From an uncultured Clostridium sp. (GTDB taxonomy: Bacteria > Bacillota > Clostridia > TANB77 > CAG-508), in the NCBI GenBank assembly GCA_930991035.1, contig CAKNRV010000013.1, positions 1 to 36,567 of the forward strand: a stretch of DNA of 36,567 bases. Reading direction: 5' to 3'. Position numbers and translations under genes: made by a program. Shown one piece after another: positions 3,232 through 13,147 of this stretch. The notes under the pieces are model-generated. The model was not told the DNA's origin, searched no databases, and saw nothing but the letters and a program-made list of their open reading frames with translations. Each line of letters opens with the position of its first letter. The first letter of the stretch is position 1.

Positions 3232-3306
3232 GGCCCCTTGGTCAAGCGGTTAAGACGCAGCCCTCTCAAGGCTGAATCATGGGTTCGATTCCCGTAGGGG
3301 TCACCA
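3232..3306 (+). tRNA. tRNA-Glu (anticodon CUC), integration target
   Basis: A 75-base tRNA. The acceptor stem GGCCCCT pairs with AGGGGTC (one G-U pair). The anticodon stem CAGCC/GGCTG closes the loop CTCTCAA with CUC at 34-36. The T-arm is GGGTTCGATTCCC and CCA is encoded. Its last 11 bases (3296-3306) are repeated at 11160-11170, which makes it the attachment site of the element that follows. Because the repeat supplies the same 3' end, the tRNA stays functional after insertion. Confidence 0.97.
3296..3306. repeat. Attachment site (tRNA-side direct repeat)
   Basis: AGGGGTCACCA, the 3' end of tRNA-Glu including discriminator and CCA. It is identical to 11160-11170. The flanking bases differ on both sides, so the visible core is 11 bp. 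Confidence 0.85.
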
Positions 3307-3317
3307 GAATCGTTAAA

Positions 3318-3355
3318 CCTAGAAATGCTTATATTTAAGGCTTTCTAGGCTTTTT
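3318..3355 (+). terminator. Element-borne terminator after tRNA-Glu
   Basis: CCTAGAAA (3318-3325) pairs with TTTCTAGG (3342-3349), followed by CTTTTTATTTTT. It would end tRNA transcription, replacing the resident terminator that now lies beyond the element at 11182. Confidence 0.65.
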
Positions 3356-3367
3356 ATTTTTCTAAAA

Positions 3368-3388
3368 TGATGCAATAGTGATGCAGTA
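3368..3388. repeat. Left arm-type repeat pair
   Basis: Two copies of TGATGCARTA at 3368-3377 and 3379-3388, 11 bp apart. The same pair, spaced 12 bp, occurs at 11015-11036 near the other end. The position between integrase and attachment site, plus the mirrored pair, fits arm-type binding sites for the N-terminal domain of the integrase. Confidence 0.6.
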
Positions 3389-3392
3389 GATT

Positions 3393-4586
3393 TTATGATA
3401 TTTTTGCAATCTGTTGTTTTACAAAATCTAAAGAAGTTTCAATATAGACTCCTTCTGTAATGTCACTACCTTCTACGTGTCCTGCTAAATATTGTATAGC
3501 GGATAAATCTATTCCAATTTCTTTCCAATGAGTTAGTGCAGTATGTCTTAATCTGTGTGTAGTTAATTCTAATGTGCAAATATGATATTTTGCATTTAAT
3601 CTTTTTAGCCACGCATTTATTTCTCCTGGTGTTACAAAAGTATTTTTTTCATAATCCCAAAATAGCAAGTTGTAAATATTGGTTATTTTTTTGTTGCACT
3701 GTTCTTCTATTATCTCTACTAATTCACTAAATAAGTTATTGTCTAATGGCAAATATCTTTGCCCCTCGTCTATCTGCGTTTTTTTATTGTAAGTTTTGGT
3801 ATGCTCTCCTAATATAACGTGATAGTGTTCATCTTGTGTTAGTGTATTATGCACATTAAACTGTTTTGTGGTCTTGTTGTAATCTTCTTTTGAGCGTGCC
3901 AATACTTCTCCAATTCTCATACCAGATATACCTTGCATCTTTACTATGTTTCTGTAAGGATGGTTTCTTTCCTCGTTGTCTAAGATACTATTAAGTTTTT
4001 CAAATTCTTTACTAGCTAAAGGTTTCACTTTTTTTGTTTTCTTTACAGATATTGGCTTTTTTAAAGTTTCATCTAACATTAAGTTATATATAAGAATTTT
4101 CCTTGAAGGAGAACAAGCAATACTAAATACCTTCCCTAGCAAACACCATATTTTATCAATGGTACTGTTAGCATATTCTTTTATTTCTTTTTTTGCAGCT
4201 TCGATATGTTTTATAGTTACTTTTTGAATAGGTAAATTGCAAAAATTAGAACAAGTCTTTTTTATTTGTTCTAATGTTTCTAAATCTCTTGAATAACTCC
4301 TATCGCTGGTAATACCATCTATATGTTTGTTTTCAATATGCTGTATTGCTATGGTAACAACTGTTTCTGTGCTTTTAGCAATGTAAGTTCCTGCATCCAA
4401 TTCGCTTTTGACTTTTGTTACTCTTGCCTTAAAATCTTTTACACTTTCTTTCTTCCTCTGCCTCATAATCTGCCTTTTATCTTGAGTATCATAATATTGA
4501 AATACTAGGCAACCCATTGTTTCACTATAAAAAAGTGAGCCTTCTCGATTTCCTACTGATTTTGTTGTTTTATTTCTTCTTTCCAT
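3393..4586 (-). CDS. int: Tyrosine recombinase (integrase)
   Basis: Catalyses site-specific integration and excision of the element at tRNA-Glu. Of 397 residues, the first ~70 resemble an arm-binding domain, followed by a SAM-like core-binding domain (~90-190). The catalytic domain shows the first arginine in GISGMRIGEVLA, the HxLRH box in THRLRHTALTHW, GH in LAGHVEGSD, and the nucleophilic tyrosine in TEGVYIETS near the C-terminus. All catalytic residues are present, so the enzyme looks intact. The ATG at 4586 has AAGGAG about 12 bases upstream, a long spacing. The gene stops 87 bases from the attachment site, with arm-type repeats in the gap. Confidence 0.95.
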   Translation of the reverse strand: MERRNKTTKSVGNREGSLFYSETMGCLVFQYYDTQDKRQIMRQRKKESVKDFKARVTKVKSELDAGTYIAKSTETVVTIAIQHIENKHIDGITSDRSYSRDLETLEQIKKTCSNFCNLPIQKVTIKHIEAAKKEIKEYANSTIDKIWCLLGKVFSIACSPSRKILIYNLMLDETLKKPISVKKTKKVKPLASKEFEKLNSILDNEERNHPYRNIVKMQGISGMRIGEVLARSKEDYNKTTKQFNVHNTLTQDEHYHVILGEHTKTYNKKTQIDEGQRYLPLDNNLFSELVEIIEEQCNKKITNIYNLLFWDYEKNTFVTPGEINAWLKRLNAKYHICTLELTTHRLRHTALTHWKEIGIDLSAIQYLAGHVEGSDITEGVYIETSLDFVKQQIAKIS

Positions 4587-4614
4587 AATAAAAATTCACT
4601 CCTTTTTATTTACA

Positions 4615-4656
4615 AGAGTGATTTAAACTGCTATAATAATTTACAGGAATCACTCT
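4615..4656 (-). promoter_or_regulatory. Inverted repeat in the integrase leader
   Basis: AGAGTGATT (4615-4623) and AATCACTCT (4648-4656) are perfectly complementary and lie just upstream of the integrase ribosome binding site. It may be a repressor-gene terminator, an integrase leader hairpin or a protein-binding palindrome. No U-tract follows in the minus direction, so a simple terminator is less likely. Confidence 0.4.
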
Positions 4657-4668
4657 ATGATTTCTAAC

Positions 4669-4715
4669 GGGGAATATTTTTGAGTATGTTTGGTGACTGC
4701 ACAAAAATATGTCCC
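4669..4715. terminator. Imperfect inverted repeat after the repressor gene
   Basis: GGGGAATATTTTTG (4669-4682) and CAAAAATATGTCCC (4702-4715) pair over 14 bases with two mismatches. On the plus strand a T6 tract follows shortly after (CTGCTTTTTT). It sits just beyond the stop codon of the minus-strand repressor gene. It could end plus-strand readthrough or form a regulatory stem. Confidence 0.35.
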
Positions 4716-4722
4716 TGCTTTT

Positions 4723-5463
4723 TTATTTCTTTTTTTCGATTTCTTTTGTATATTTTTCTTTTGCCTTTTTTAAATTTTCGTTTATTTCTTCTAGGCAAGC
4801 CTCTTCTAATAGTTTTTGAGTAGGTATTTTCTTTCTAGTATATAATTTATTTGTAATTTCTTCTTCTTTTTTTATATTTCCTGATAATGTCAAATACAAA
4901 TTTACATCTTCTGTTTTTGCTGTAAAGTAATCTTCTATACTACTTAAAACTGGTTGACAATTTTTATCTTTCCACCTTTTATATATTCTATCGTAAAGAC
5001 TCTGTACTTTTTTCATTGCTTTTTTCTTTTCCTTGTCTGTCGTTTTTGCATTTTCTATTTTACGATATTGCTCTTCAAAAAAACCGTCATCTGGTGGTAA
5101 TACTTCTTGTTTTATCAAAAAGTTAAGAATTGGTATTAAATATTGTCCACCATATACAAAGTTAATTTCTTCTAATATTTGGGCTGCGGTGTCATCTATT
5201 CCAATAGCATCACATAAGGCTCTATAATCTTTTTTAGGAGTTTTACAATTTGTTATACCTAGTAAATAATCTGTTGATGTTTCAAAGTATTTTGCTATTT
5301 GACATAGTATATCTATTGGAATATTGCGTCCCCTTTCACAATGACCTATGGTCGATGTATCGACATGTAATTCGTCTGCAAGATTTTTTTGTGTTAATCC
5401 TTTTTCTTCTCTTAATTCTGCAATTCTTTTACTAGCAATTTTCAAGTAATCATTATTTGTCAT
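4723..5463 (-). CDS. XRE-family transcriptional repressor (lysogeny-type)
   Basis: About 246 residues. Residues ~8-65 form a Cro/CI-type helix-turn-helix: ELREEKGLTQKNLADELHVD, then TSTIGHCERGRNIPID and LLGITN. The remaining ~170 residues are charged and helical with no recognised peptidase motif, so it is not an obvious LexA-type self-cleaving repressor. I place the start at ATG 5463, seven bases after AAAGGAGG. An upstream in-frame ATG at 5502 overlaps the operator palindrome and has no ribosome binding site. It is divergent from the 5605 gene across a palindromic control region, and probably represses that promoter and its own. Confidence 0.88.
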   Translation of the reverse strand: MTNNDYLKIASKRIAELREEKGLTQKNLADELHVDTSTIGHCERGRNIPIDILCQIAKYFETSTDYLLGITNCKTPKKDYRALCDAIGIDDTAAQILEEINFVYGGQYLIPILNFLIKQEVLPPDDGFFEEQYRKIENAKTTDKEKKKAMKKVQSLYDRIYKRWKDKNCQPVLSSIEDYFTAKTEDVNLYLTLSGNIKKEEEITNKLYTRKKIPTQKLLEEACLEEINENLKKAKEKYTKEIEKKK

Positions 5464-5487
5464 TTTTCTTTCCTCCTTTATTTTTTG

Positions 5488-5577
5488 TGACAAATACATC
5501 ATACATATTGTTTCTATGATGTATCTGTCATATAATTATTATAAAATGAAATAAAATAATTGTCAAGATACATCTTG
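5488..5577 (+). promoter_or_regulatory. Divergent control region: promoter with overlapping operators
   Basis: Rightward promoter: TTGTTT at 5508-5513, a 17-base spacer, TATAAT at 5531-5536. The spacer's last 15 bases (ATGATGTATCTGTCA, 5516-5530) are an inverted copy, with one mismatch, of 5488-5502 (TGACAAATACATCAT). A third, related half-site, TGTCAAGATACATC, begins at 5561. A minus-strand -10-like TATGTA lies inside the palindrome gap. A repressor bound here would block the rightward promoter and probably its own gene. This is the arrangement expected of a lysis/lysogeny-like switch. Confidence 0.7.
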
Positions 5578-5604
5578 CAAGTACTGAAAAAAGGAGGTTT
5601 TTTT

Positions 5605-5757
5605 ATGGAAAATGAAGAAGAAATTAGAGCTTTAAAAAACGCTTATGCTAAAGAATGGAGAAAAAGAAATCCAGAAAAAGTAAAAGCAACGACTGCACGA
5701 TTTTACAAAAGATTAAAAATAAAAAAAGAGCAAGAAAATAATAATAAAAATATGTAG
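5605..5757 (+). CDS. Small basic phage-type protein, unknown function
   Basis: 50 residues, rich in Lys/Arg/Glu: a KNAYAKEWRKRNPEKVKAT core, then RFYKRLKIKK. I recognise this as a type of tiny early protein common in Firmicute prophages and islands, without known function. ATG 5605 follows AAAGGAGG. It is the first gene of the rightward transcript and is followed 17 bases later by the excisionase-like gene. Confidence 0.65.
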   Translation: MENEEEIRALKNAYAKEWRKRNPEKVKATTARFYKRLKIKKEQENNNKNM

Positions 5758-5774
5758 AAGCGGAGGTAGTAAAG

Positions 5775-6050
5775 ATGACAGTAAACATAGACACTAATAA
5801 TGAGGAACAAATAAAAATACTCAACGAAATACTTGCTAAATATGAACAAGTAGAAGAACACACAAAAAAGCTACAATTCATTTCAATTAAGGAACTATCA
5901 GAAATGATGCATTGTTCACTAAGTACAGCACAAACGATTTTTAATCTTCCAGATTTTCCCTCACTTGATTTTGCAAAAGGTAAAATTGTGTTAATTGATG
6001 CACTAAAAGAGTGGTGTATGACTAAAAGAAGTAAAGAGGATTATAAATAA
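5775..6050 (+). CDS. Helix-turn-helix excisionase/AlpA-like protein
   Basis: 91 residues. The C-terminal part (from residue ~35) reads FISIKELSEMMHCSLSTAQ, then IFNLPDFPSLDFAKGKIVL and DALKEWCMTKR. This is the layout of winged-HTH DNA-binding proteins of the AlpA/excisionase type (KELSEMMHCS as the helix-turn-helix, a short wing, then a W-containing helix). The first ~30 residues are helical and may dimerise. It probably directs excision or regulates the element. GGAGG lies about ten bases before the ATG at 5775. Confidence 0.7.
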   Translation: MTVNIDTNNEEQIKILNEILAKYEQVEEHTKKLQFISIKELSEMMHCSLSTAQTIFNLPDFPSLDFAKGKIVLIDALKEWCMTKRSKEDYK

Positions 6051-6166
6051 GTTACAAAAAAGAGTGAAAAAAAAAGAGCAGTATATCTTTGAAAATCACT
6101 TTTTTGGGTGGCAACTCGCATAACATATAAAAATTTTATTTTGTTTACATAAAGGAGTGTAAGATT

Positions 6167-8116
6167 ATGGAAGAAATAAAAAAAATTACAATACCAGAGT
6201 TTAAAGAACTATCACAGTGGTTTTGTTGGAATTATAGATATGATGAAAAAGGCAAAAAAACAAAAGTACCTATATCTTATAAAAAAGAGAAAACTGGTAC
6301 AGATGAAGCACATCGTCATACTTGGACTACTTTCGAAAATGCAGAAACAGCTAAAACTGAATATGGATTTAATGGAGTAGGTTTTGCATTTGATAGTGGA
6401 CAAGGTGGCATAGATATTGACAAAAGGGATTTAGATGACCCTATGACTAGAGATATATTATCTATGTTTAGTGAAACTTACGCAGAAATAAGCCCTAGTG
6501 GTAAAGGTTTTCATGTTCCCTTTTTAGTTGATTTAAGCAAGATACCAAAAAATTATAAAAAAAAATATTATCAAAAAAATGCAAGACTTGGTCTTGAATG
6601 CTATATTGGTGGAATTACTAAAAGATATTTTACTTATACGGGAAACGTAATTAATGACAAGCCAATAACTGACTGTACCAAAGAATTATTAATGTTTTTA
6701 AACAAATATATGTTAAAAGAAAGTAAAAGTACAAGCACCAAATGCACAGATACAGAGTTTAAAAGTACAAAATATGCAGATAGTGATATTACAGATGATA
6801 TTTGTAATGATATAATTGAAATTATAAAAAAAAGTAAACAAGCTGAAAGATTTAATAAGCTATATTTTGAAGGAGATATAACAGATTATGATGGAGATGA
6901 CAGTTCAGCAGATTTAGCTTTATGTGACATTTTAGCTTTTTACTGCGGAGAAGATTTTGAATTGATAGACGCTTTATTTTGTAAAAGTAAATTATATCGT
7001 ACCAAATGGGATAGACCTGATTATAAATCTAGCACAATTACAAAAGCTATTGAGTTTTGTGATGGTAAATTTTATAGAAAGACTATAAAAGAAGTTAGTA
7101 CAATAGAGTCTATAACTGCAAAAGAACTATCACTAAAAAAATTATCAGAACTTTATGTTGTAGTAAAAGAATTACTAGGGCAAGGTTTATCTGTATTAGC
7201 AGGACAACGAAAACTTGGAAAAAGTTGGATGATTTTATATTTGTGTTATTGTGTTTGCACAGGACAACCTTTTTTAGGATTTGAAACAATAAAAAGTGCT
7301 TGTTGGTATTTAGCATTAGAAGATAGTGATAGAAGATTACAAGAGAGAATGGAAAAATTATTTGGAGATAAAGATATTCCTGAAAATTTACATTATTCTT
7401 TTTATTGTGAACCAATAGATAAAGGGTTAATAGAGCAATTAGAAAAAAAATTGCGTGAATATCCAGACATAAAATTAATTGTCATTGATACACTACAAAA
7501 AGTTAGAGGTGTTAAAAAAAATAATCAAAATGATTATGATTATGACTATAAAGAAATTGGAAAACTAAAAGACTTTGCAGATAAGCATAATATTTGTATT
7601 TTAGTTGTGCATCATTTAAGAAAAATGAAAGACTATTCTGACCCATTTAATAATGTTAGTGGTTCTGTTGGAATAACTGGTGCTGCTGATACTACTATAA
7701 TACTATATAAAGACGATTTCAAAGATGAAAATGCTCATTTTGTAACTCAAAGTAGAGATTTTGAAGGAATAGAAAAGATTTTATTTTTTAATGATTGTAA
7801 ATGGGAAGTTATAGGAGATTCTATTGATTTTGACAAAGAACTTAAAAAATTGTCTTACGAAACAGACCCTATTGTTATTACAATAAATAAATTACTTGAA
7901 GAAAGTCCAGAGGGGGTAAAAATCATAGCAACTGACTTACTAAAAAAAATCATTGAAACTACTGGAATTAAACCAGTAGATACTCCGAGTGCATTAAGTA
8001 AACATATAAAAAATAAACTTCAATTTGATTTATTAGCTTATGGTAGAATACATTACGAACCAGCACCAGAAAACGGAGGTTCTAGTGGTAGGAAAATGTT
8101 TTTTTGTAAAATTTAA
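6167..8116 (+). CDS. Primase-polymerase/RepA-like helicase replication protein
   Basis: 649 residues with a replication-initiator layout. Residues ~1-180 are an archaeo-eukaryotic-type primase/polymerase domain: the metal motif GGIDIDKRDL, the motif SPSGKGFHVPF, and RYFTYTGN. Residues ~220-305 resemble the helix-bundle domain of NrS-1-type primases (SSADLALCDILAFYCG, KWDRPDY). Residues ~340-560 are a RecA-like helicase with Walker A AGQRKLGKSW, Walker B LIVIDTLQKV, a VVHHLRK sensor region and SGSVGITGAAD. The C-terminal ~80 residues look like a winged helix. The gene has an AAAGGAG ribosome binding site and is followed directly by an iteron cluster. It likely drives autonomous replication of the excised element. 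Confidence 0.9.
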   Translation: MEEIKKITIPEFKELSQWFCWNYRYDEKGKKTKVPISYKKEKTGTDEAHRHTWTTFENAETAKTEYGFNGVGFAFDSGQGGIDIDKRDLDDPMTRDILSMFSETYAEISPSGKGFHVPFLVDLSKIPKNYKKKYYQKNARLGLECYIGGITKRYFTYTGNVINDKPITDCTKELLMFLNKYMLKESKSTSTKCTDTEFKSTKYADSDITDDICNDIIEIIKKSKQAERFNKLYFEGDITDYDGDDSSADLALCDILAFYCGEDFELIDALFCKSKLYRTKWDRPDYKSSTITKAIEFCDGKFYRKTIKEVSTIESITAKELSLKKLSELYVVVKELLGQGLSVLAGQRKLGKSWMILYLCYCVCTGQPFLGFETIKSACWYLALEDSDRRLQERMEKLFGDKDIPENLHYSFYCEPIDKGLIEQLEKKLREYPDIKLIVIDTLQKVRGVKKNNQNDYDYDYKEIGKLKDFADKHNICILVVHHLRKMKDYSDPFNNVSGSVGITGAADTTIILYKDDFKDENAHFVTQSRDFEGIEKILFFNDCKWEVIGDSIDFDKELKKLSYETDPIVITINKLLEESPEGVKIIATDLLKKIIETTGIKPVDTPSALSKHIKNKLQFDLLAYGRIHYEPAPENGGSSGRKMFFCKI

Positions 8117-8136
8117 AAAGATACTTAAAAGCAATT

Positions 8137-8195
8137 TACCGTTACTTATCGTTACTTTCTGTTATATGTAACGGTTTGTAACGGTAAGTAACGAT
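8137..8195. repeat. Iteron cluster, candidate replication origin of the element
   Basis: CGTTAC occurs at 8140 and 8150, with a degenerate TGTTAT at 8160. The inverse GTAACG occurs at 8168, 8178 and 8188. Spacing within each set is exactly 10 bp, one helical turn, and the two sets face each other across an AT-rich centre. It lies directly after the primase-helicase gene, the place where origins of Staphylococcus pathogenicity islands lie relative to rep. The repeats end ten or so bases before the next gene's ribosome binding site, so they might also act in its expression. Confidence 0.65.
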
Positions 8196-8218
8196 TATTT
8201 TATATAAGGAGGTTATTC

Positions 8219-8622
8219 ATGAATGAACAAAATCTAATTCCACAAAATAAAAGAACAAAGAGTGAACAAACAGAAATTGCTAAAAAAGGTGGTAAAGCAA
8301 GTGGAAAATCAAGAAGAAAAAAGAAATATATAAAAGAGCAGTTGGAAACTTTAATGCTGTTAGATTTAAATGACGAAACATTAGTAAATAATATGCGTAG
8401 ATTAGGAATTGAAGAAAATGATTTAACTATACAAAATCGGTATTTTGTGTGCATTAGTTCAACAAGCATTGCATCGGAAATTTAAAAGCATATCAGCTAA
8501 TTAGAGACCAAATACAACAAAATCCTAAAGAAGATAGTGTCGAGCCATTACAGAACATATATTTTATAAATGACATTTCAAAAATAAAAAAAGAAGAAAC
8601 AGAAAAAGTAGAAGAAAAATAA
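8219..8622 (+). pseudogene. KGG-motif phage-type protein, broken by two single-base shifts
   Basis: The start at ATG 8219 follows AAGGAGG. The N-terminus (ERT-like TKSEQTEIAKKGGKASGKSR, then a basic RRKKKYIKEQ stretch) matches a small protein often found near phage packaging or replication genes. As written, the frame ends at 8485. Dropping C8438 and C8475 gives a continuous frame to the TAA at 8622. That frame reads QNGILCALVQQALHGNLKAY, then QLIRDQIQQNP and an acidic tail, the expected family pattern (an Ala/Val-rich helix, then KAF/Y-x-x-IRDxIxQxP). The restored protein is 133 residues. Either the gene is decayed or the sequence has two local errors. Confidence 0.7.
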
Positions 8623-8642
8623 ATTTTGAGGAGGAAATAATC

Positions 8643-8903
8643 ATGGATAAAAATACATATAAAACACCAGTTGTTAAAGTATTTATAACAGACGATGGTG
8701 TACAATATTTCTTTTGGTGTAGTTTTTGTAATTGTTTTCATAGACACGGAGCTGTAAGTGCAGGACATAGAATTGCACATTGTAATCATCTTAGTAATTC
8801 ACCATATCTGTTCGATGGCTACATTTTGAAAGAATACACCAAAAAAGAATTAAAAGAACTAGGACTACCAACAGACTATTATGAAAAACGTAAAAAAAAG
8901 TAA
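8643..8903 (+). CDS. Small Cys/His-rich protein (possible zinc finger)
   Basis: 86 residues: FWCSFCNCFHRHG, followed by GHRIAHCNHL and SPYLFDGY. The CxxCxxxH...HxxxHC arrangement suggests a zinc site. The type is recurrent in Firmicute phage-like islands, but I know of no assigned function. Its GAGGAGG ribosome binding site is 20 bases after the restored stop of the preceding gene, so the two are cotranscribed. It is the last gene before a strong terminator that closes the replication module. Confidence 0.65.
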   Translation: MDKNTYKTPVVKVFITDDGVQYFFWCSFCNCFHRHGAVSAGHRIAHCNHLSNSPYLFDGYILKEYTKKELKELGLPTDYYEKRKKK

Positions 8904-8927
8904 TTTTTATAAAACACCAAAAACAAT

Positions 8928-8958
8928 GAAGATAGCATTTTATTTATTTGCTATCTTC
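8928..8958. terminator. Bidirectional terminator between replication and cargo modules
   Basis: GAAGATAGCA (8928-8937) pairs perfectly with TGCTATCTTC (8949-8958). On the plus strand TATTTTTAC follows, and on the minus strand TTGTTTTTGG. It separates the rightward 8643 gene from the leftward regulator at 8992. Confidence 0.8.
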
Positions 8959-8991
8959 TATTTTTACATTTTTTATATCGTTTAAGTCCAC

Positions 8992-9231
8992 CTAAAAGTC
9001 CATTTCTTTTGATAGTTCATCAATAGTATAAACTTTTTTGGTTTCCTTATCTAAAAATTGAATTTCAAAATCACAAACATTTATAAATTTGTTAATTGTA
9101 TCGAAATTAGGATTACTATATTCTGTTTCATAATTTGATATAGTATTATTTGCTAAATGCAATTCATCCCCTACATTGCTTTGTGTTAATCCTCTTATTT
9201 TTCTTATATTTTTTAATATTGTACCTATCAT
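8992..9231 (-). CDS. XRE-family HTH regulator of the cargo block
   Basis: 79 residues, almost wholly a Cro/CI helix-turn-helix: NIRKIRGLTQSNVGDELHLA, then NNTISNYETEYSNPNFDTI. A short tail, VYTIDELSKEM, follows. The start ATG at 9231 has only a weak AGGGA-like site. It is divergent from the 9385 gene. The 150-base gap holds a strong promoter and repeated CTCGAA and TCTTGAA motifs, so this protein most likely controls the cargo genes. Confidence 0.85.
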   Translation of the reverse strand: MIGTILKNIRKIRGLTQSNVGDELHLANNTISNYETEYSNPNFDTINKFINVCDFEIQFLDKETKKVYTIDELSKEMDF

Positions 9232-9289
9232 AATAAATCCCTACCTTTTTGATTTATTATTTCAAAAAGTAAGTAAATTATCATAAAAT

Positions 9290-9359
9290 CTCGAAATGCT
9301 CGAATATTTTTTCTCGAATATCTTGAAGTTATTATTATGTTTTGATATAATATTCAAGA
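9290..9359 (+). promoter_or_regulatory. Cargo promoter with operator-like repeats
   Basis: The promoter is TTGAAG at 9323-9328, a 17-base spacer, TATAAT at 9346-9351, with TG one base before the -10. Three CTCGAA direct repeats lie at 9290, 9299 and 9313. An inverted pair, TCTTGAA (9321-9327) and TTCAAGA (9353-9359), brackets the promoter core, overlapping the -35 and flanking the -10. This fits repression by the divergent XRE protein. Confidence 0.65.
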
Positions 9360-9384
9360 ATATCAAAGTTAAGGAGCAATAAAA

Positions 9385-9807
9385 TTGAAAGAAAAAGAAC
9401 AAACAATTTATAATACACCAAATGGTCTAATTTATCAATTAGATGTATTTAAAGGTAAAAAAGCATTAGCCGGAGATTATTTTCCTTGTTCTTATGCTAA
9501 TACAAAAATGGTATTAGAAAGTTTAGGTATAGAAGTAACTATTGAAGAAACAATAGATGGAGTAAAAAATAGAATTCTAAATGGCGAAAAATATGATGTT
9601 ATTTTTACTAACAATATTTATCGTAGTGGCACAGGCTCACAGCTATTAAAAGACTTGAAAGAAATAAAAGACTTTAACACACCTATAATAATTCATACTA
9701 TTTCAAGAGAGCCTATACAATATTTTCTAAAGTTGGGTTTTGATGGTTGTCTAAAAAAGCCAATAAAACAAGAAGAAACTATACAAGTATTAAAAAATTT
9801 ATTGTGA
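9385..9807 (+). CDS. Pseudo-receiver (CheY-like) stand-alone protein
   Basis: 140 residues. From about residue 28 the pattern is that of a response-regulator receiver: a first strand with ALAGDYF, ...VLESLGIEV, KYDVIFTNNIYRSGTG, PIIIHTISREP and the final FDGCLKKPI. The conserved Thr (HTIS) and Lys (KKP) are present, but the phosphoacceptor Asp after strand 3 is replaced by Asn (FTNN), and the acidic pair after strand 1 is reduced. It therefore probably does not take a phosphate by the normal route. The start is TTG 9385 with an AAGGAG site. It is the first gene of the cargo transcript and has no DNA-binding domain. Confidence 0.7.
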   Translation: MKEKEQTIYNTPNGLIYQLDVFKGKKALAGDYFPCSYANTKMVLESLGIEVTIEETIDGVKNRILNGEKYDVIFTNNIYRSGTGSQLLKDLKEIKDFNTPIIIHTISREPIQYFLKLGFDGCLKKPIKQEETIQVLKNLL

Positions 9808-9882
9808 AAAATATAAACTTATGATATTATAAGGAAAATTCGACAAAATATTACAAAAGATAAAAAGGAGGTGTAAATTCAA

Positions 9883-10218
9883 ATGAAAAGTCAAAAAGGC
9901 ATATCTTTAATTTCACTTTTACTTGTAATAATAATCATATTTTTATGTATATTCCTATTTATGAATATTTCTAATAAAAATAATTCAAAAATAGTTGGTT
10001 CTTGGGAGTTTCAATATGGTACTTCTTATACATTTAAAGAAGATGGAACTGGAAGTACAAATATTTTTAACAACAAAATAGAATTTACTTATAAAATAAA
10101 ATCCAATAAAATTTCTATAACATATAATAATGGTCAAGGTACATTTGAAAATGAATACAGTATTAAAGATGACAAATTATATATTGGTGATGATATTGTA
10201 TGTACAAAAGTCAAATGA
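9883..10218 (+). CDS. Prepilin-like or N-anchored beta-rich exported protein
   Basis: 111 residues. The start, MKSQKGISLISLLLV then a run of Ile/Phe/Leu, resembles a class III (prepilin) signal: basic residues, Gly, then a hydrophobic helix; the usual Glu at +5 is Ser here. The rest (GSWEFQYGTSYTFKEDGTGS, ITYNNGQGTF) has a small beta-barrel pattern like lipocalin-like DUF families that begin with a G-x-W motif. It is therefore a membrane-tethered extracellular domain. AAGGAGG precedes ATG 9883. It is cotranscribed with the pseudo-receiver gene and a similar neighbour. Confidence 0.65.
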   Translation: MKSQKGISLISLLLVIIIIFLCIFLFMNISNKNNSKIVGSWEFQYGTSYTFKEDGTGSTNIFNNKIEFTYKIKSNKISITYNNGQGTFENEYSIKDDKLYIGDDIVCTKVK

Positions 10219-10261
10219 TGATTATAAAAATACTGCAAAAGAAAAAGGAGGTGAACAACAA

Positions 10262-10729
10262 ATGAAAAAAGAAAGGGGAATTACTCTAATAAAGTTAATA
10301 CTTATTGCAATAATTATTATCGGTATAATTATATTTATTGTTGCAAATAATCAAGGTAATGTAATGGCAGATATTGAATGGGGTTATATGCCTTCTCCTG
10401 AATATTATGAGTTAAGGGTTGCAGTGCTAGACAGTCAGTTATATGGTAGTGGAACTTTATCAGAATCAAGTTTTGAAGCATTAGGTAAAGACGTAAAAGA
10501 TGCAAAGGGTAAATGGTTTAAAAATAGTGATGCTAATTTTCGTGCTTTAATATTAGATGGTGATACTGGAGAAATGACTACTTTGACTGATGGAGAACAT
10601 GTTGCAATTTTTTTATTTACTGATGGCAACGATTATGTGGACTATATTTTCGCAGACGAAGATTTTTTGGAAACTCTTGGAATGTCTGATTATAATCTTC
10701 TTGGCGGTTATAAAATCACGATTAAGTAA
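10262..10729 (+). CDS. Second prepilin-like membrane-anchored protein
   Basis: 155 residues. ATG 10262 is chosen because AAAGGAGG lies just upstream; the frame extends further but overlaps the previous gene. The N-terminus MKKERGITLIKLILIA, then an Ile-rich helix, has the basic-Gly-hydrophobic form of a prepilin signal, with Lys instead of Glu at +5. The exported part is acidic, with ALILDGDTGEMTTLTDGEH and FTDGNDYVDYIFADEDFLE; I do not recognise it. Its closeness in design to the 9883 product suggests that they act together at the membrane. Confidence 0.65.
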   Translation: MKKERGITLIKLILIAIIIIGIIIFIVANNQGNVMADIEWGYMPSPEYYELRVAVLDSQLYGSGTLSESSFEALGKDVKDAKGKWFKNSDANFRALILDGDTGEMTTLTDGEHVAIFLFTDGNDYVDYIFADEDFLETLGMSDYNLLGGYKITIK

Positions 10730-10746
10730 GGAAGTGAAAAAACTAT

Positions 10747-11017
10747 ATGAGTATGTATGAAGATTTAGATAAATTACATAAATTAAAAGAAAATGGAGTT
10801 ATAACAGAAGAAGAATACGAATTGGAAAAAAAGCGATTGTTAAAAGAAAGAAACTCTAAAGAGCAAAACCAAAATATTGGTATAATTCTACTTCGTGTTC
10901 TCTGTATTATATTAGGATTTATAGTAATGTCTTGGGCTATTCGGAATTATCGGAGCAATAATTACAACAATAATAATAGCAGTTGTATGTTTAATTATAG
11001 GAAATCAAAAAAACTGA
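10747..11017 (+). pseudogene. SHOCT-domain membrane protein with a one-base frameshift
   Basis: The N-terminus LHKLKENGVITEEEYELEKK is a SHOCT domain (short oligomerisation motif), followed by a transmembrane helix (IGIILLRVLCIILGFIV). As written the frame then becomes an Asn-rich tail ending at 11025. Dropping one T near 10930 restores a second membrane helix, LGLFGIIGAIITTIIIAVVC, then LIIGNQKN and a stop at 11015-11017, giving 89 residues, the expected two-helix layout. The restored stop lies in the right arm-type repeat. Decay or a sequence error is possible. Confidence 0.6.
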
Positions 11018-11036
11018 TGCAATAAGTGATGCAATA
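11015..11036. repeat. Right arm-type repeat pair
   Basis: TGATGCAATA at 11015-11024 and again at 11027-11036. It matches the pair at 3368-3388 near the left end of the element. Likely integrase or excisionase arm sites. Confidence 0.6.
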
Positions 11037-11159
11037 CAAATGATTTTAAAAATATCTTGTATAAATTTTAAATTAAATATTTTATACAAAACACAGAAAA
11101 TGCAGTAAAATAAATATGTATAAAATCACGTGAAAGCATTGAAAACACAGCAATGTGAC

Positions 11160-11170
11160 AGGGGTCACCA
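11160..11170. repeat. Attachment site (distal direct repeat)
   Basis: AGGGGTCACCA, identical to the last 11 bases of tRNA-Glu at 3296-3306. It marks the distal junction of the element and is not part of a full tRNA. Confidence 0.85.
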
Positions 11171-11239: not shown

Positions 11240-11644
11240 CTAATCATTCTGTATGCATAGCTTCAAAATTTCTCCTAATCTTTCATCCTGCTTTGTTAAA
11301 TACAAATACCCTATCAAAGCCTCAAATCCAGTTGAATGCATATATTCTTGCACTGTTGCATTCTTAGGCAAATGATGGTTTTCTGCGTTTCTGCCACGTT
11401 TTACTATCTCTTTTTCTTTATCTGTTAATGTTTTATCTAATTTTTGTAATATATCAGCTTGAGCTTTTGCCTTAACATATTTTATTGCTTCTATATGTAG
11501 TTTATGTGGCTTTAATTTTGTTGTATTCACCAAGTGCATTCTAATAAATAATTCATAAACACTATCCCCTACATACGCCCAAGTAAGTGGAGATAGTGTA
11601 TTTATCTCTGCTTCATTTTTTGTTCTTTCTATTAATTTTTTCAT
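11240..11644 (-). CDS. mrnC: Mini-ribonuclease III (MrnC)
   Basis: RNase III catalytic domain without a dsRNA-binding domain; in Bacillus it matures 23S rRNA. Seen: LTWAYVGDSVYELFIRMHLV (the DSVYE region holds the catalytic acid residues), KYVKAKAQAD, RRGRNA-like KRGRNAENHHLPKNA, and TGFEALIGYLYL. It has 134 residues, normal for the family. The start is ATG 11644, with GGGAGT five bases upstream; an in-frame ATG at 11656 lacks a ribosome binding site and supplies that GGGAG itself. It lies downstream of the structured RNA at 11706-12071, whose terminator sits about 65 bases before it. Confidence 0.93.
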   Translation of the reverse strand: MKKLIERTKNEAEINTLSPLTWAYVGDSVYELFIRMHLVNTTKLKPHKLHIEAIKYVKAKAQADILQKLDKTLTDKEKEIVKRGRNAENHHLPKNATVQEYMHSTGFEALIGYLYLTKQDERLGEILKLCIQND

Positions 11645-11705
11645 TTTTACTCCCATTTATTATTAATTTTCTTGTTAACATTGTAGCATATCTATCAATA
11701 TATAA

Positions 11706-12071
11706 ATTAAAGAAAAGCCAACTTGCTTAAAGGCCGAGCAAATTAGCTTTAATCACATTTTACTTAAACTCCTGCATTTAATATATTATAAATCTATAAA
11801 CTTTGTGTAAATCCTTGTCTCGGATATACACCTCCTTGGATAGATAAATCTTTGTGTATTTCTATTATATTAAATTTAAAATATATTTAACTATACGGCC
11901 ATATAGTCAAACAGAAGCCCTCAGTGCTTATCAGTTAGTGTTCTGATTTTATTTTTTGTTTTTCCCCCAGCACTAGAATTTAATAAACATACTCACATCC
12001 ATATATGTTCACATTTATAAGCTATAGGGGATGAATATTAAAGCTTTCATAAAAATCAAGCCTCCTATTCT
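11706..12071 (-). ncRNA. Candidate ~365-nt structured non-coding RNA
   Basis: A 540-base gap without coding frames contains a minus-strand promoter (12078-12106) and a strong terminator (11714-11750), so a ~365-nt transcript is predicted. Stems visible (minus strand): ACTATA/TATAGT around TGGCCG; AGTGCT/AGCACT enclosing ATCAG/CTGAT; GTGTA-ATCC/GGAT-TACAC near an AAGGAGG; and a GGGGG that could pair with an upstream CCCC. I found no RNase P, tmRNA, T-box or common riboswitch signature. It could be a stand-alone RNA or a long attenuating leader of mrnC. The family is unknown to me. Confidence 0.6.
11714..11750 (-). terminator. Strong terminator at the 3' end of the RNA candidate
   Basis: Fourteen continuous pairs (three of them G-U) between 11737-11750 and 11714-11727, a nine-base loop, and a UUUUCUUUAAUUU-type tail in the minus direction. 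Confidence 0.8.
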
Positions 12072-12077
12072 TTTTCT

Positions 12078-12106
12078 AGTTTAACATATTAATTTTAAAA
12101 AAACAA
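12078..12106 (-). promoter_or_regulatory. Promoter of the RNA candidate
   Basis: On the minus strand TTGTTT (12101-12106), a 17-base spacer and TAAACT (12078-12083), preceded by TG one base upstream (extended -10). The start is predicted near 12071. Confidence 0.6.
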
Positions 12107-12195: not shown

Positions 12196-13086
12196 TTAAA
12201 TTTCCAATGTAATTCTTCCTAATTTTCCATTTCTAAAATCTTCCAAGATTATTTTGGCAGTCTTTTCCTCGTCTACATTTCCTCCTGAAATAATTGCACC
12301 TCTTTTTCTTCCTATAATATGCATTATTTCAAGTATCTTTTCATTTTCTTCCAGTTCAGTTTGTCCTAATATTGCTTCAATTTCTTGTTTCTCTAATTTA
12401 TATCTTTCTACTAAGTTATCTGGATAATCTATTATCAATTTTTTTAGCAAGCTAAAGCCTACTTCTATTGTCTGTAATACATCATCTTTTATAGTTCCAG
12501 TATATGCTAAATTTAAAGCTACTTCTTCACTCTCAAATTTAGGCCACAATACACCCGGAGTATCCATTAATTCTATATTTTGATTAATTCGTATCCACTG
12601 TTTTTGCCTTGTTACACCGGGTTTGTTACCAACAGTGGCTGAATTTTTTTTAGTTAATCTATTTATAAATGAAGATTTACCAACATTTGGAATACCTACA
12701 ATCATAACTCTTATAGATTTTCCTATCCTACCTTTATTGGCATATTTTTCTTGTCTTGATTTATATATTTCTTCTATTTTTTTTATTGCTGTGTTAATTC
12801 CATCTCCGTTATTCGAGTTAACCAATACTGCCTCTATTCCATCTTTTTTAAATTTTGCAACCCAGTTATTATTTTGTTTTTCGTCAGCCAAGTCACATTT
12901 ATTAAGCACTATTAATTTATCCTTTTCCCTAGTAATTTGTTCTATATCTGGATTTCTACTAGAAATTGGAATTCGTGCATCTAATATTTCTACCACTACA
13001 TCTATTAATTTTAAATCTTCTATTATTTGCTTTTTGGTTTTAGCCATATGGCCTGGGTACCAGTTAATATTCACATTATCACTCAT
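12196..13086 (-). CDS. rbgA: Ribosome biogenesis GTPase RbgA (YlqF)
   Basis: Circularly permuted GTPase needed for late 50S assembly. The order G4-G1-G3 is visible: NKCDLAD (G4), then GIPNVGKSSFINRL (P-loop, G1), and DTPGVLWP (G3). The N-terminal INWYPGHMAKT is the family signature with its key histidine, and the C-terminal ~100 residues form the ANTAR-like RNA-binding domain. The start is ATG 13086, about ten bases after AGGAG; a GTG at 13095 overlaps that site and is less likely. The product has 296 residues, a typical length. It appears to be a single-gene transcript. Confidence 0.95.
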   Translation of the reverse strand: MSDNVNINWYPGHMAKTKKQIIEDLKLIDVVVEILDARIPISSRNPDIEQITREKDKLIVLNKCDLADEKQNNNWVAKFKKDGIEAVLVNSNNGDGINTAIKKIEEIYKSRQEKYANKGRIGKSIRVMIVGIPNVGKSSFINRLTKKNSATVGNKPGVTRQKQWIRINQNIELMDTPGVLWPKFESEEVALNLAYTGTIKDDVLQTIEVGFSLLKKLIIDYPDNLVERYKLEKQEIEAILGQTELEENEKILEIMHIIGRKRGAIISGGNVDEEKTAKIILEDFRNGKLGRITLEI

Positions 13087-13147
13087 TTTTCTCACTCTCC
13101 TGCTTTTCTACTTCTTCTAACAGTAGATCAAAATTAGATTTGTCAGC

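What the first reader, a model, noticed from the sequence alone, without database searches (positions are those of the whole stretch)
11706..12071. Unassigned ~365-nt structured RNA upstream of mrnC
A promoter with extended -10, several clear stems, a possible GGGGG/CCCC pairing across ~70 bases and a 14-pair terminator define a transcript with no reading frame. It is too long for an ordinary riboswitch and shows none of the RNase P, tmRNA or T-box hallmarks I know. Its position before a double-strand-specific RNase gene is suggestive: the RNA could be a substrate of, or control, MrnC.
Basis: partly seen in the sequence, partly recalled or inferred. Interest (0 to 1): 0.65.

Follow-up and report, generated by a model that had tools for sequence, protein, structure and literature searches.

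The report
Rare structured RNA beside mrnC
Next to a ribosome-maturation gene pair in a gut-type Clostridia genome lies a real, intricately folded RNA gene of about 360 bases that matches no catalogued family; a second copy in another genus preserves its fold and an 11-codon mini-gene, which suggests an RNA whose shape responds to being translated.

Summary
On the minus strand (the mrnC strand) lies a promoter (TTGTTT-17-TAAACT, extended -10), a ~360-nt transcript folding far better than shuffles (z -3.9; plus strand 0), and a terminator. No Rfam family matches. It is not "without reading frame": it starts with a well-spaced Shine-Dalgarno and an 11-codon ORF (MKALIFIPYSL*).

Single-sequence covariance models of the two halves independently hit one place in another genus of the family (G489, CALXQA010000070.1), E ~1e-8 and 1e-9. 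There the promoter, the ORF (MKALILHPYVF*), the helices, a 7-bp pseudoknot and a hairpin-loop/terminal-loop contact are kept, several by compensatory changes. So this is a true RNA family.

It is very rare: 2 of 390 family genomes sampled, not found in 29 congeners, where the rbgA-mrnC gap is 1-258 nt (539 nt here). In G489 it lies downstream of mrnC with its own promoter, and here mrnC appears to have its own promoter after the terminator. Cis-control of mrnC is therefore not the conserved feature, although both copies adjoin rbgA-mrnC.

Best guess: a stand-alone, translation-responsive RNA whose pseudoknot is opened by ribosomes on the leader ORF. The mechanism is inferred, not shown.

The parts
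12101..12106 (-). -35 box TTGTTT of the RNA's promoter
   Evidence: sequence; same TTGTTT-17-TGT-TA..T arrangement in G489
12078..12086 (-). extended -10 (TGT) TAAACT; expected start of transcription near 12071
   Evidence: sequence; G489 has TGT-TAGAAT at the same spacing
11709..12071 (-). the RNA, about 360 nt
   Evidence: fold z -3.9; homologue in G489 with z -5.3
12061..12066 (-). Shine-Dalgarno AGGAGG, partly paired in hairpin P1 (12070-12033)
   Evidence: identical in G489
12015..12050 (-). 11-codon ORF MKALIFIPYSL*; its codons 7-9 form the 5' side of the pseudoknot stem
   Evidence: MKALILHPYVF* in G489; 0.9% by chance
11963..12031 (-). pseudoknot stem 1 (A:B): UCCCCUA 12031-12025 with UGGGGGA 11969-11963
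   Evidence: pairing probability 0.96; kept in G489, one one-sided change
11922..11975 (-). pseudoknot stem 2 (B':C): UAGUGCU 11975-11969 with AGCACUG 11928-11922
   Evidence: UUGUGCU/AGCACAA in G489; top-scoring conserved helix of the unbiased scan
11766..11920 (-). 3' domain closed by D:E, GGGCUUCUGU 11920-11911 with GCAGGAGUUU 11775-11766
   Evidence: compensatory C-G to U-A in G489; model R1 hit, E 5.4e-8
11888..11909 (-). hairpin H3, loop GGCC (11900-11897), proposed to contact the terminator loop
   Evidence: loops GGCCG/CGGCC here, AUUGCCGU/ACGGCAAU in G489
11805..11837 (-). AAGGAG followed by hairpin H4 with invariant loop CC-GAGACAA-GG on a covarying stem
11753..11758 (-). ATG-TGA start-stop, 10 nt after AGGAG (which is sequestered in D:E)
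   Evidence: AAATGTGA also in G489; G489 has AAGAG there, so the ribosome site is not conserved
11709..11748 (-). 3' hairpin and U tract (terminator)
   Evidence: pairing probability 0.98; in G489 the hairpin and loop are kept but the tail lacks a U tract
11680..11688 (-). extended -10 (TGC) TACAAT, likely mrnC's own promoter
   Evidence: sequence only
11240..11656 (-). mrnC (Mini-RNase III; likely start ATG at 11644)
   Evidence: Pfam Ribonuclease_3, 2.9e-26
12196..13095 (-). rbgA (ylqF) GTPase
   Evidence: Pfam MMR_HSR1, 3e-22

Best explanation
It is a self-contained gene for a pseudoknotted RNA of about 360 nt that carries an 11-codon leader ORF at its 5' end, and it most likely works as a translation-responsive RNA. 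Left untranslated, the sequence inside the ORF (codons 7-9, CCCCUAU) pairs with UGGGGG to form pseudoknot stem 1, stacked on stem 2 (UAGUGCU/AGCACUG), and the 3' domain is locked by contact of the H3 loop with the loop of the terminal hairpin. A ribosome on the ORF must unwind stem 1 and so change the downstream fold, and with it termination, read-through or exposure of the unpaired AAGGAG and GAGACAA-loop elements. Shown: promoter-like sequence, predicted fold, and conservation of ORF, helices and loop contact in two genera. Inferred: transcription, translation of the ORF, the switch, and what is regulated. The target is probably not specifically mrnC in cis.
For: Fold z -3.9 here and -5.3 in the homologue. 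Both half-models hit the same place in G489, in order, E 5.4e-8 and 1.3e-9. The ORF keeps its ribosome site, frame and length. Nine double compensatory changes with five pairs broken in one or both copies, among 64 pairs compared. In a scan of all column pairs the pseudoknot stem ranks first, the loop contact is tied for second at score 11, and A:B is fifth; ranks 2-6 exceed the 95% level of shuffles. Loop contact of 5 G-C pairs here and 8 pairs in G489; chance 1e-5 for five G-C-only pairs and 0.002 for 7 or more. Modelled ribosome occupancy removes A:B and creates B':C in the window copy.
Against: Only two copies are known. In G489 the nested fold does not switch when the ORF is covered. The ORF's nucleotide conservation could reflect RNA structure rather than peptide. 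No downstream target is shared. The G489 terminal hairpin lacks a U tract, so the 3' ends may differ. The best single helix score (12) is below the 95% value for the single best helix in shuffles (13); only the set is significant.
Confidence: 0.42

Rival explanations
1. A classical ribosome-mediated attenuator (erm, msrD or vmlR type) that came with a resistance or stress gene: here the gene is lost or replaced by mrnC, in G489 it lies beyond the contig end.
For: 5' ORF with Shine-Dalgarno, alternative helices, terminator and a length of a few hundred nt resemble such leaders (papers PMC4335068, PMC4191407, PMC9226507; only titles and abstracts seen). The G489 contig breaks about 30 nt after the RNA.
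Against: No match to any region of 72,556 plasmids or 50,697 phages beyond short A+T-rich stretches. The window copy is intact without such a gene. Conserved sequence stops at the terminal hairpin. The pseudoknot and loop contact suggest a rigid fold.
Confidence: 0.23
2. An RNA functionally tied to MrnC or RbgA in trans: a substrate, decoy or regulator of the double-strand-specific RNase or of 50S assembly.
For: Both known copies, in two genera, adjoin rbgA-mrnC although on different sides of mrnC, unlikely by chance among about 1,500 genes.
Against: Descent near the same place explains the adjacency too. Congeners that have mrnC lack the RNA.
Confidence: 0.15
3. A cis-acting attenuator of mrnC in this genome only.
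For: It lies directly upstream on the same strand and ends in a terminator.
Against: mrnC has an extended -10 sequence after the terminator; in G489 mrnC overlaps the end of rbgA and the RNA is downstream.
Confidence: 0.1
4. A decaying relic of a mobile element with no present function.
For: Patchy distribution; insertion relative to congeners.
Against: Promoter, ORF, fold and loop contact are intact and compensated over a divergence as deep as that of rbgA.
Confidence: 0.08

Closest known systems
Ribosome-mediated attenuators (ermK, mef/msrD, vmlR, bmrCD leaders)
   Same: Short ORF with Shine-Dalgarno at the 5' end of a structured leader, and a 3' intrinsic terminator in the window copy
   Different: No conserved downstream gene; pseudoknot and loop contact with the terminal hairpin; terminator tail absent in the second copy; no sequence match in plasmids or phages
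Large structured bacterial RNAs (ROOL, GOLLD, OLE, raiA)
   Same: Stand-alone, elaborate RNA with tertiary loop contacts and patchy distribution (resemblance from memory, and the abstract of PMC12286853)
   Different: No Rfam match at any useful score; contains a conserved small ORF; lies beside rbgA-mrnC
tmRNA (RF00023)
   Same: About 360 nt, pseudoknot, short coding stretch; in several congeners tmRNA is a neighbour of mrnC
   Different: No match and no tRNA-like domain; the genome has its own tmRNA at C33
6S RNA (RF00013)
   Same: Independent small structured RNA
   Different: The genome's 6S RNA is elsewhere (C12, E 1.4e-23)

Membership tests
Ribosome-mediated attenuator | short translated ORF near the 5' end | tested here: inconclusive
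   ORF with Shine-Dalgarno present and conserved in frame and length; translation not shown
Ribosome-mediated attenuator | mutually exclusive helices controlled by ribosome position on the ORF | tested here: inconclusive
   A:B to B':C switch in the window model but not in G489; the two may instead coexist as a pseudoknot
Ribosome-mediated attenuator | the same regulated gene directly downstream in the known copies | tested here: not met
   mrnC follows here; in G489 mrnC precedes the RNA. The gene after it in G489 is beyond the contig end, so a target there is not excluded
Ribosome-mediated attenuator | intrinsic terminator or sequestered ribosome site at the 3' end | tested here: inconclusive
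   terminator in the window; hairpin without U tract in G489
tmRNA | RF00023 profile and tRNA-like end | tested here: not met
   canonical tmRNA elsewhere
6S RNA | RF00013 profile | tested here: not met
   true 6S elsewhere
Any Rfam 15 family (RNase P, T-box, riboswitches, ROOL, GOLLD, OLE, raiA, introns and others) | score at or above the gathering threshold | tested here: not met
   window; homologue
Conserved structured RNA | compensatory changes that keep helices between relatives | tested here: met
   two sequences only

The most novel reading that the evidence does not exclude
A new class of stand-alone bacterial RNA in which an 11-codon ORF is built into a pseudoknot, and a hairpin-terminator loop contact locks the fold, so that translation of the mini-ORF switches the RNA; it persists or travels beside the ribosome-assembly genes rbgA and mrnC and may act on MrnC or the 50S subunit.
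Probability: 0.25. Interest if true: 0.75.

Novelty: new variant of a known kind. Interest (0 to 1): 0.52.

Why it matters
If right, it is an uncatalogued RNA family with tertiary contacts recognisable by compensatory change, combining a conserved mini-ORF with a pseudoknot and a terminator-loop contact. It would show that translation-sensing RNAs can exist as self-contained genes detached from any fixed target gene, and it gives a direct test of a link to the 23S-maturing RNase MrnC.

Tried and rejected
Whole-RNA blastn against 94 relatives, 391 class genomes, phages and plasmids gave only short A+T-rich or coding matches. A pattern scan of genome contigs returned the G489 contig and 15 unrelated places; viral scans found nothing real (L099 was a phage coding region). 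Weak model hits in G478, G043, G063, G510, G620 and G760 (18-25 bits) were judged chance. 6S and tmRNA identity rejected; RNase P only through the lack of an Rfam match. tmRNA replacement was considered because tmRNA often neighbours mrnC in congeners and G489 shows none, but this genome has both. Type III antitoxin: no tandem repeats. Retron: none of the five window proteins scanned is a reverse transcriptase; the rest of the window was not scanned. Continuation of the G489 contig was sought and not found.

Full report
Observation. The features lie on the minus strand, the strand of mrnC (11656-11240) and rbgA (13095-12196). A promoter TTGTTT-17-TAAACT with extended -10 (12106-12078) is followed by about 360 nt without a long frame and a 12-14-pair terminator stem with TTTTCTTT (11748-11709). 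The minus strand folds at -87.2 kcal/mol against -68.3 +/- 4.8 for shuffles, z -3.9; the plus strand is indistinguishable from shuffles. No Rfam family matches. A Shine-Dalgarno so placed with an ORF of at least 8 codons arises in 0.9% of resampled versions.

Genomic setting. In the same genus, 23 genomes keep rbgA directly before mrnC with 1-258 nt between them; here there are 539 nt. The RNA is thus an insertion or a retained rarity. Downstream of mrnC most congeners have tRNA-Glu and several also tmRNA. In the window that side is occupied by an element of about 7.9 kb between tRNA-Glu (3232-3306) and mrnC, with the tRNA end AGGGGTCACCA repeated at 11160-11170; the RNA is outside that element. 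An extended -10 sequence TGC-TACAAT (11688-11680) after the terminator would serve mrnC alone.

Relatives. blastn in 94 relatives, 391 class genomes, phages and plasmids found nothing convincing. I built two covariance models from the window alone, R1 for 11925-11762 and R2 for 12070-11963. In 143 genomes both hit the same contig of G489, another genus of the family, in the right order: R2 at C70:6927-7031 (E 1.3e-9) and R1 at 7056-7217 (E 5.4e-8). A further search of 390 family genomes with R2 again gave only G000 and G489 above noise. The G489 contig is CALXQA010000070.1, a MAG of an uncultured Clostridia bacterium. There the order is rbgA-mrnC-RNA, with the RNA's own TTGTTT-17-TAGAAT promoter just after mrnC, and the contig ends about 30 nt after the terminal hairpin. 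The two RNAs are 63.5% identical, rbgA 67.9% and mrnC 71.1% at the DNA level, third codon positions 51-53%: the split is old, not a recent transfer between these genomes.

What is kept. The leader ORF region is nearly identical (AGGAGGCTKGATTTTTATGAAAGCTTTAATATT) and the peptide keeps start, length and stop: MKALIFIPYSL and MKALILHPYVF. Helices: A:B CCCCUA/UGGGGG and CCCCUA/UAGGGG; B':C UAGUGCU/AGCACUG and UUGUGCU/AGCACAA; D:E with a C-G to U-A double change; H3 and H4 with double changes, H4 under an invariant loop GAGACAA; the terminal hairpin with three. In total nine double changes and five broken pairs among 64 pairs aligned by hand. A:B and B':C interleave and adjoin, that is, they can form an H-type pseudoknot, which nested folding cannot show. 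The loop of H3 and the loop of the terminal hairpin are complementary in both: GGCCG/CGGCC here, AUUGCCGU/ACGGCAAU in G489, each stronger within than between molecules. In a scan of all pairs of columns of the sequence-only alignment A3, B':C ranks first, the loop contact is tied for second (score 11), and A:B is fifth; the best single score is not beyond shuffles, but ranks 2-6 exceed their 95% levels. With two sequences this is good, not final, evidence.

Mechanism. The ORF's codons 7-9 are the 5' strand of stem 1. Blocking them in a folding model removes A:B and creates B':C in the window copy while D:E stays; in G489 the nested model does not switch. I therefore propose that translation of the mini-ORF opens the pseudoknot and changes the downstream fold, which the loop contact ties to the 3' hairpin. 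Every functional step is inferred. A classical attenuator is the main rival, but no target gene is shared and the window copy is intact without one. Adjacency of both copies to rbgA-mrnC leaves a trans link to MrnC possible; control of mrnC in cis is not the conserved feature.

Verdict. A real, rare, uncatalogued structured RNA with a conserved mini-ORF. Mechanism confidence is modest because only two copies are known and one is at a contig end.

Noticed in passing
window 3307-11170: Integrative element of about 7.9 kb inserted at the 3' end of tRNA-Glu(ctc): the 11-base tRNA end AGGGGTCACCA recurs at 11160-11170 (0.01 expected by chance). It carries an NrS-1-like primase/AAA_25 helicase protein (6167-8116) and a small HTH-like gene (8992-9231, -).
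   Followed up: partly
L083 (G489 C70): G489, 95% complete, shows no tmRNA above cut-off; in several congeners tmRNA sits next to mrnC and tRNA-Glu, so it may lie past the contig break.
   Followed up: partly
L029, L035, L040, L043 in the rbgA-mrnC gap: Short G+C-rich palindromes (TGCGCAATTGGGGAC..., CAAAAGGGGACGGGCTTG...) stand in the gap in several congeners, like a dispersed hairpin repeat of this genus.
   Followed up: no
window 11847-11858 and 11798-11809: A 12-base repeat (UACACAAAGNUU on the RNA strand) occurs on both sides of hairpin H4 and could give H4's 5' arm an alternative partner.
   Followed up: no
window 12023-12019 with 11750-11746: The end of the ORF (AGCUU) can pair with the 5' arm of the terminal hairpin (AAGCU; coordinates approximate); in G489 GUCUU/AGGAC with two double changes. 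A possible anti-terminator contact, but only 5-6 pairs.
   Followed up: no
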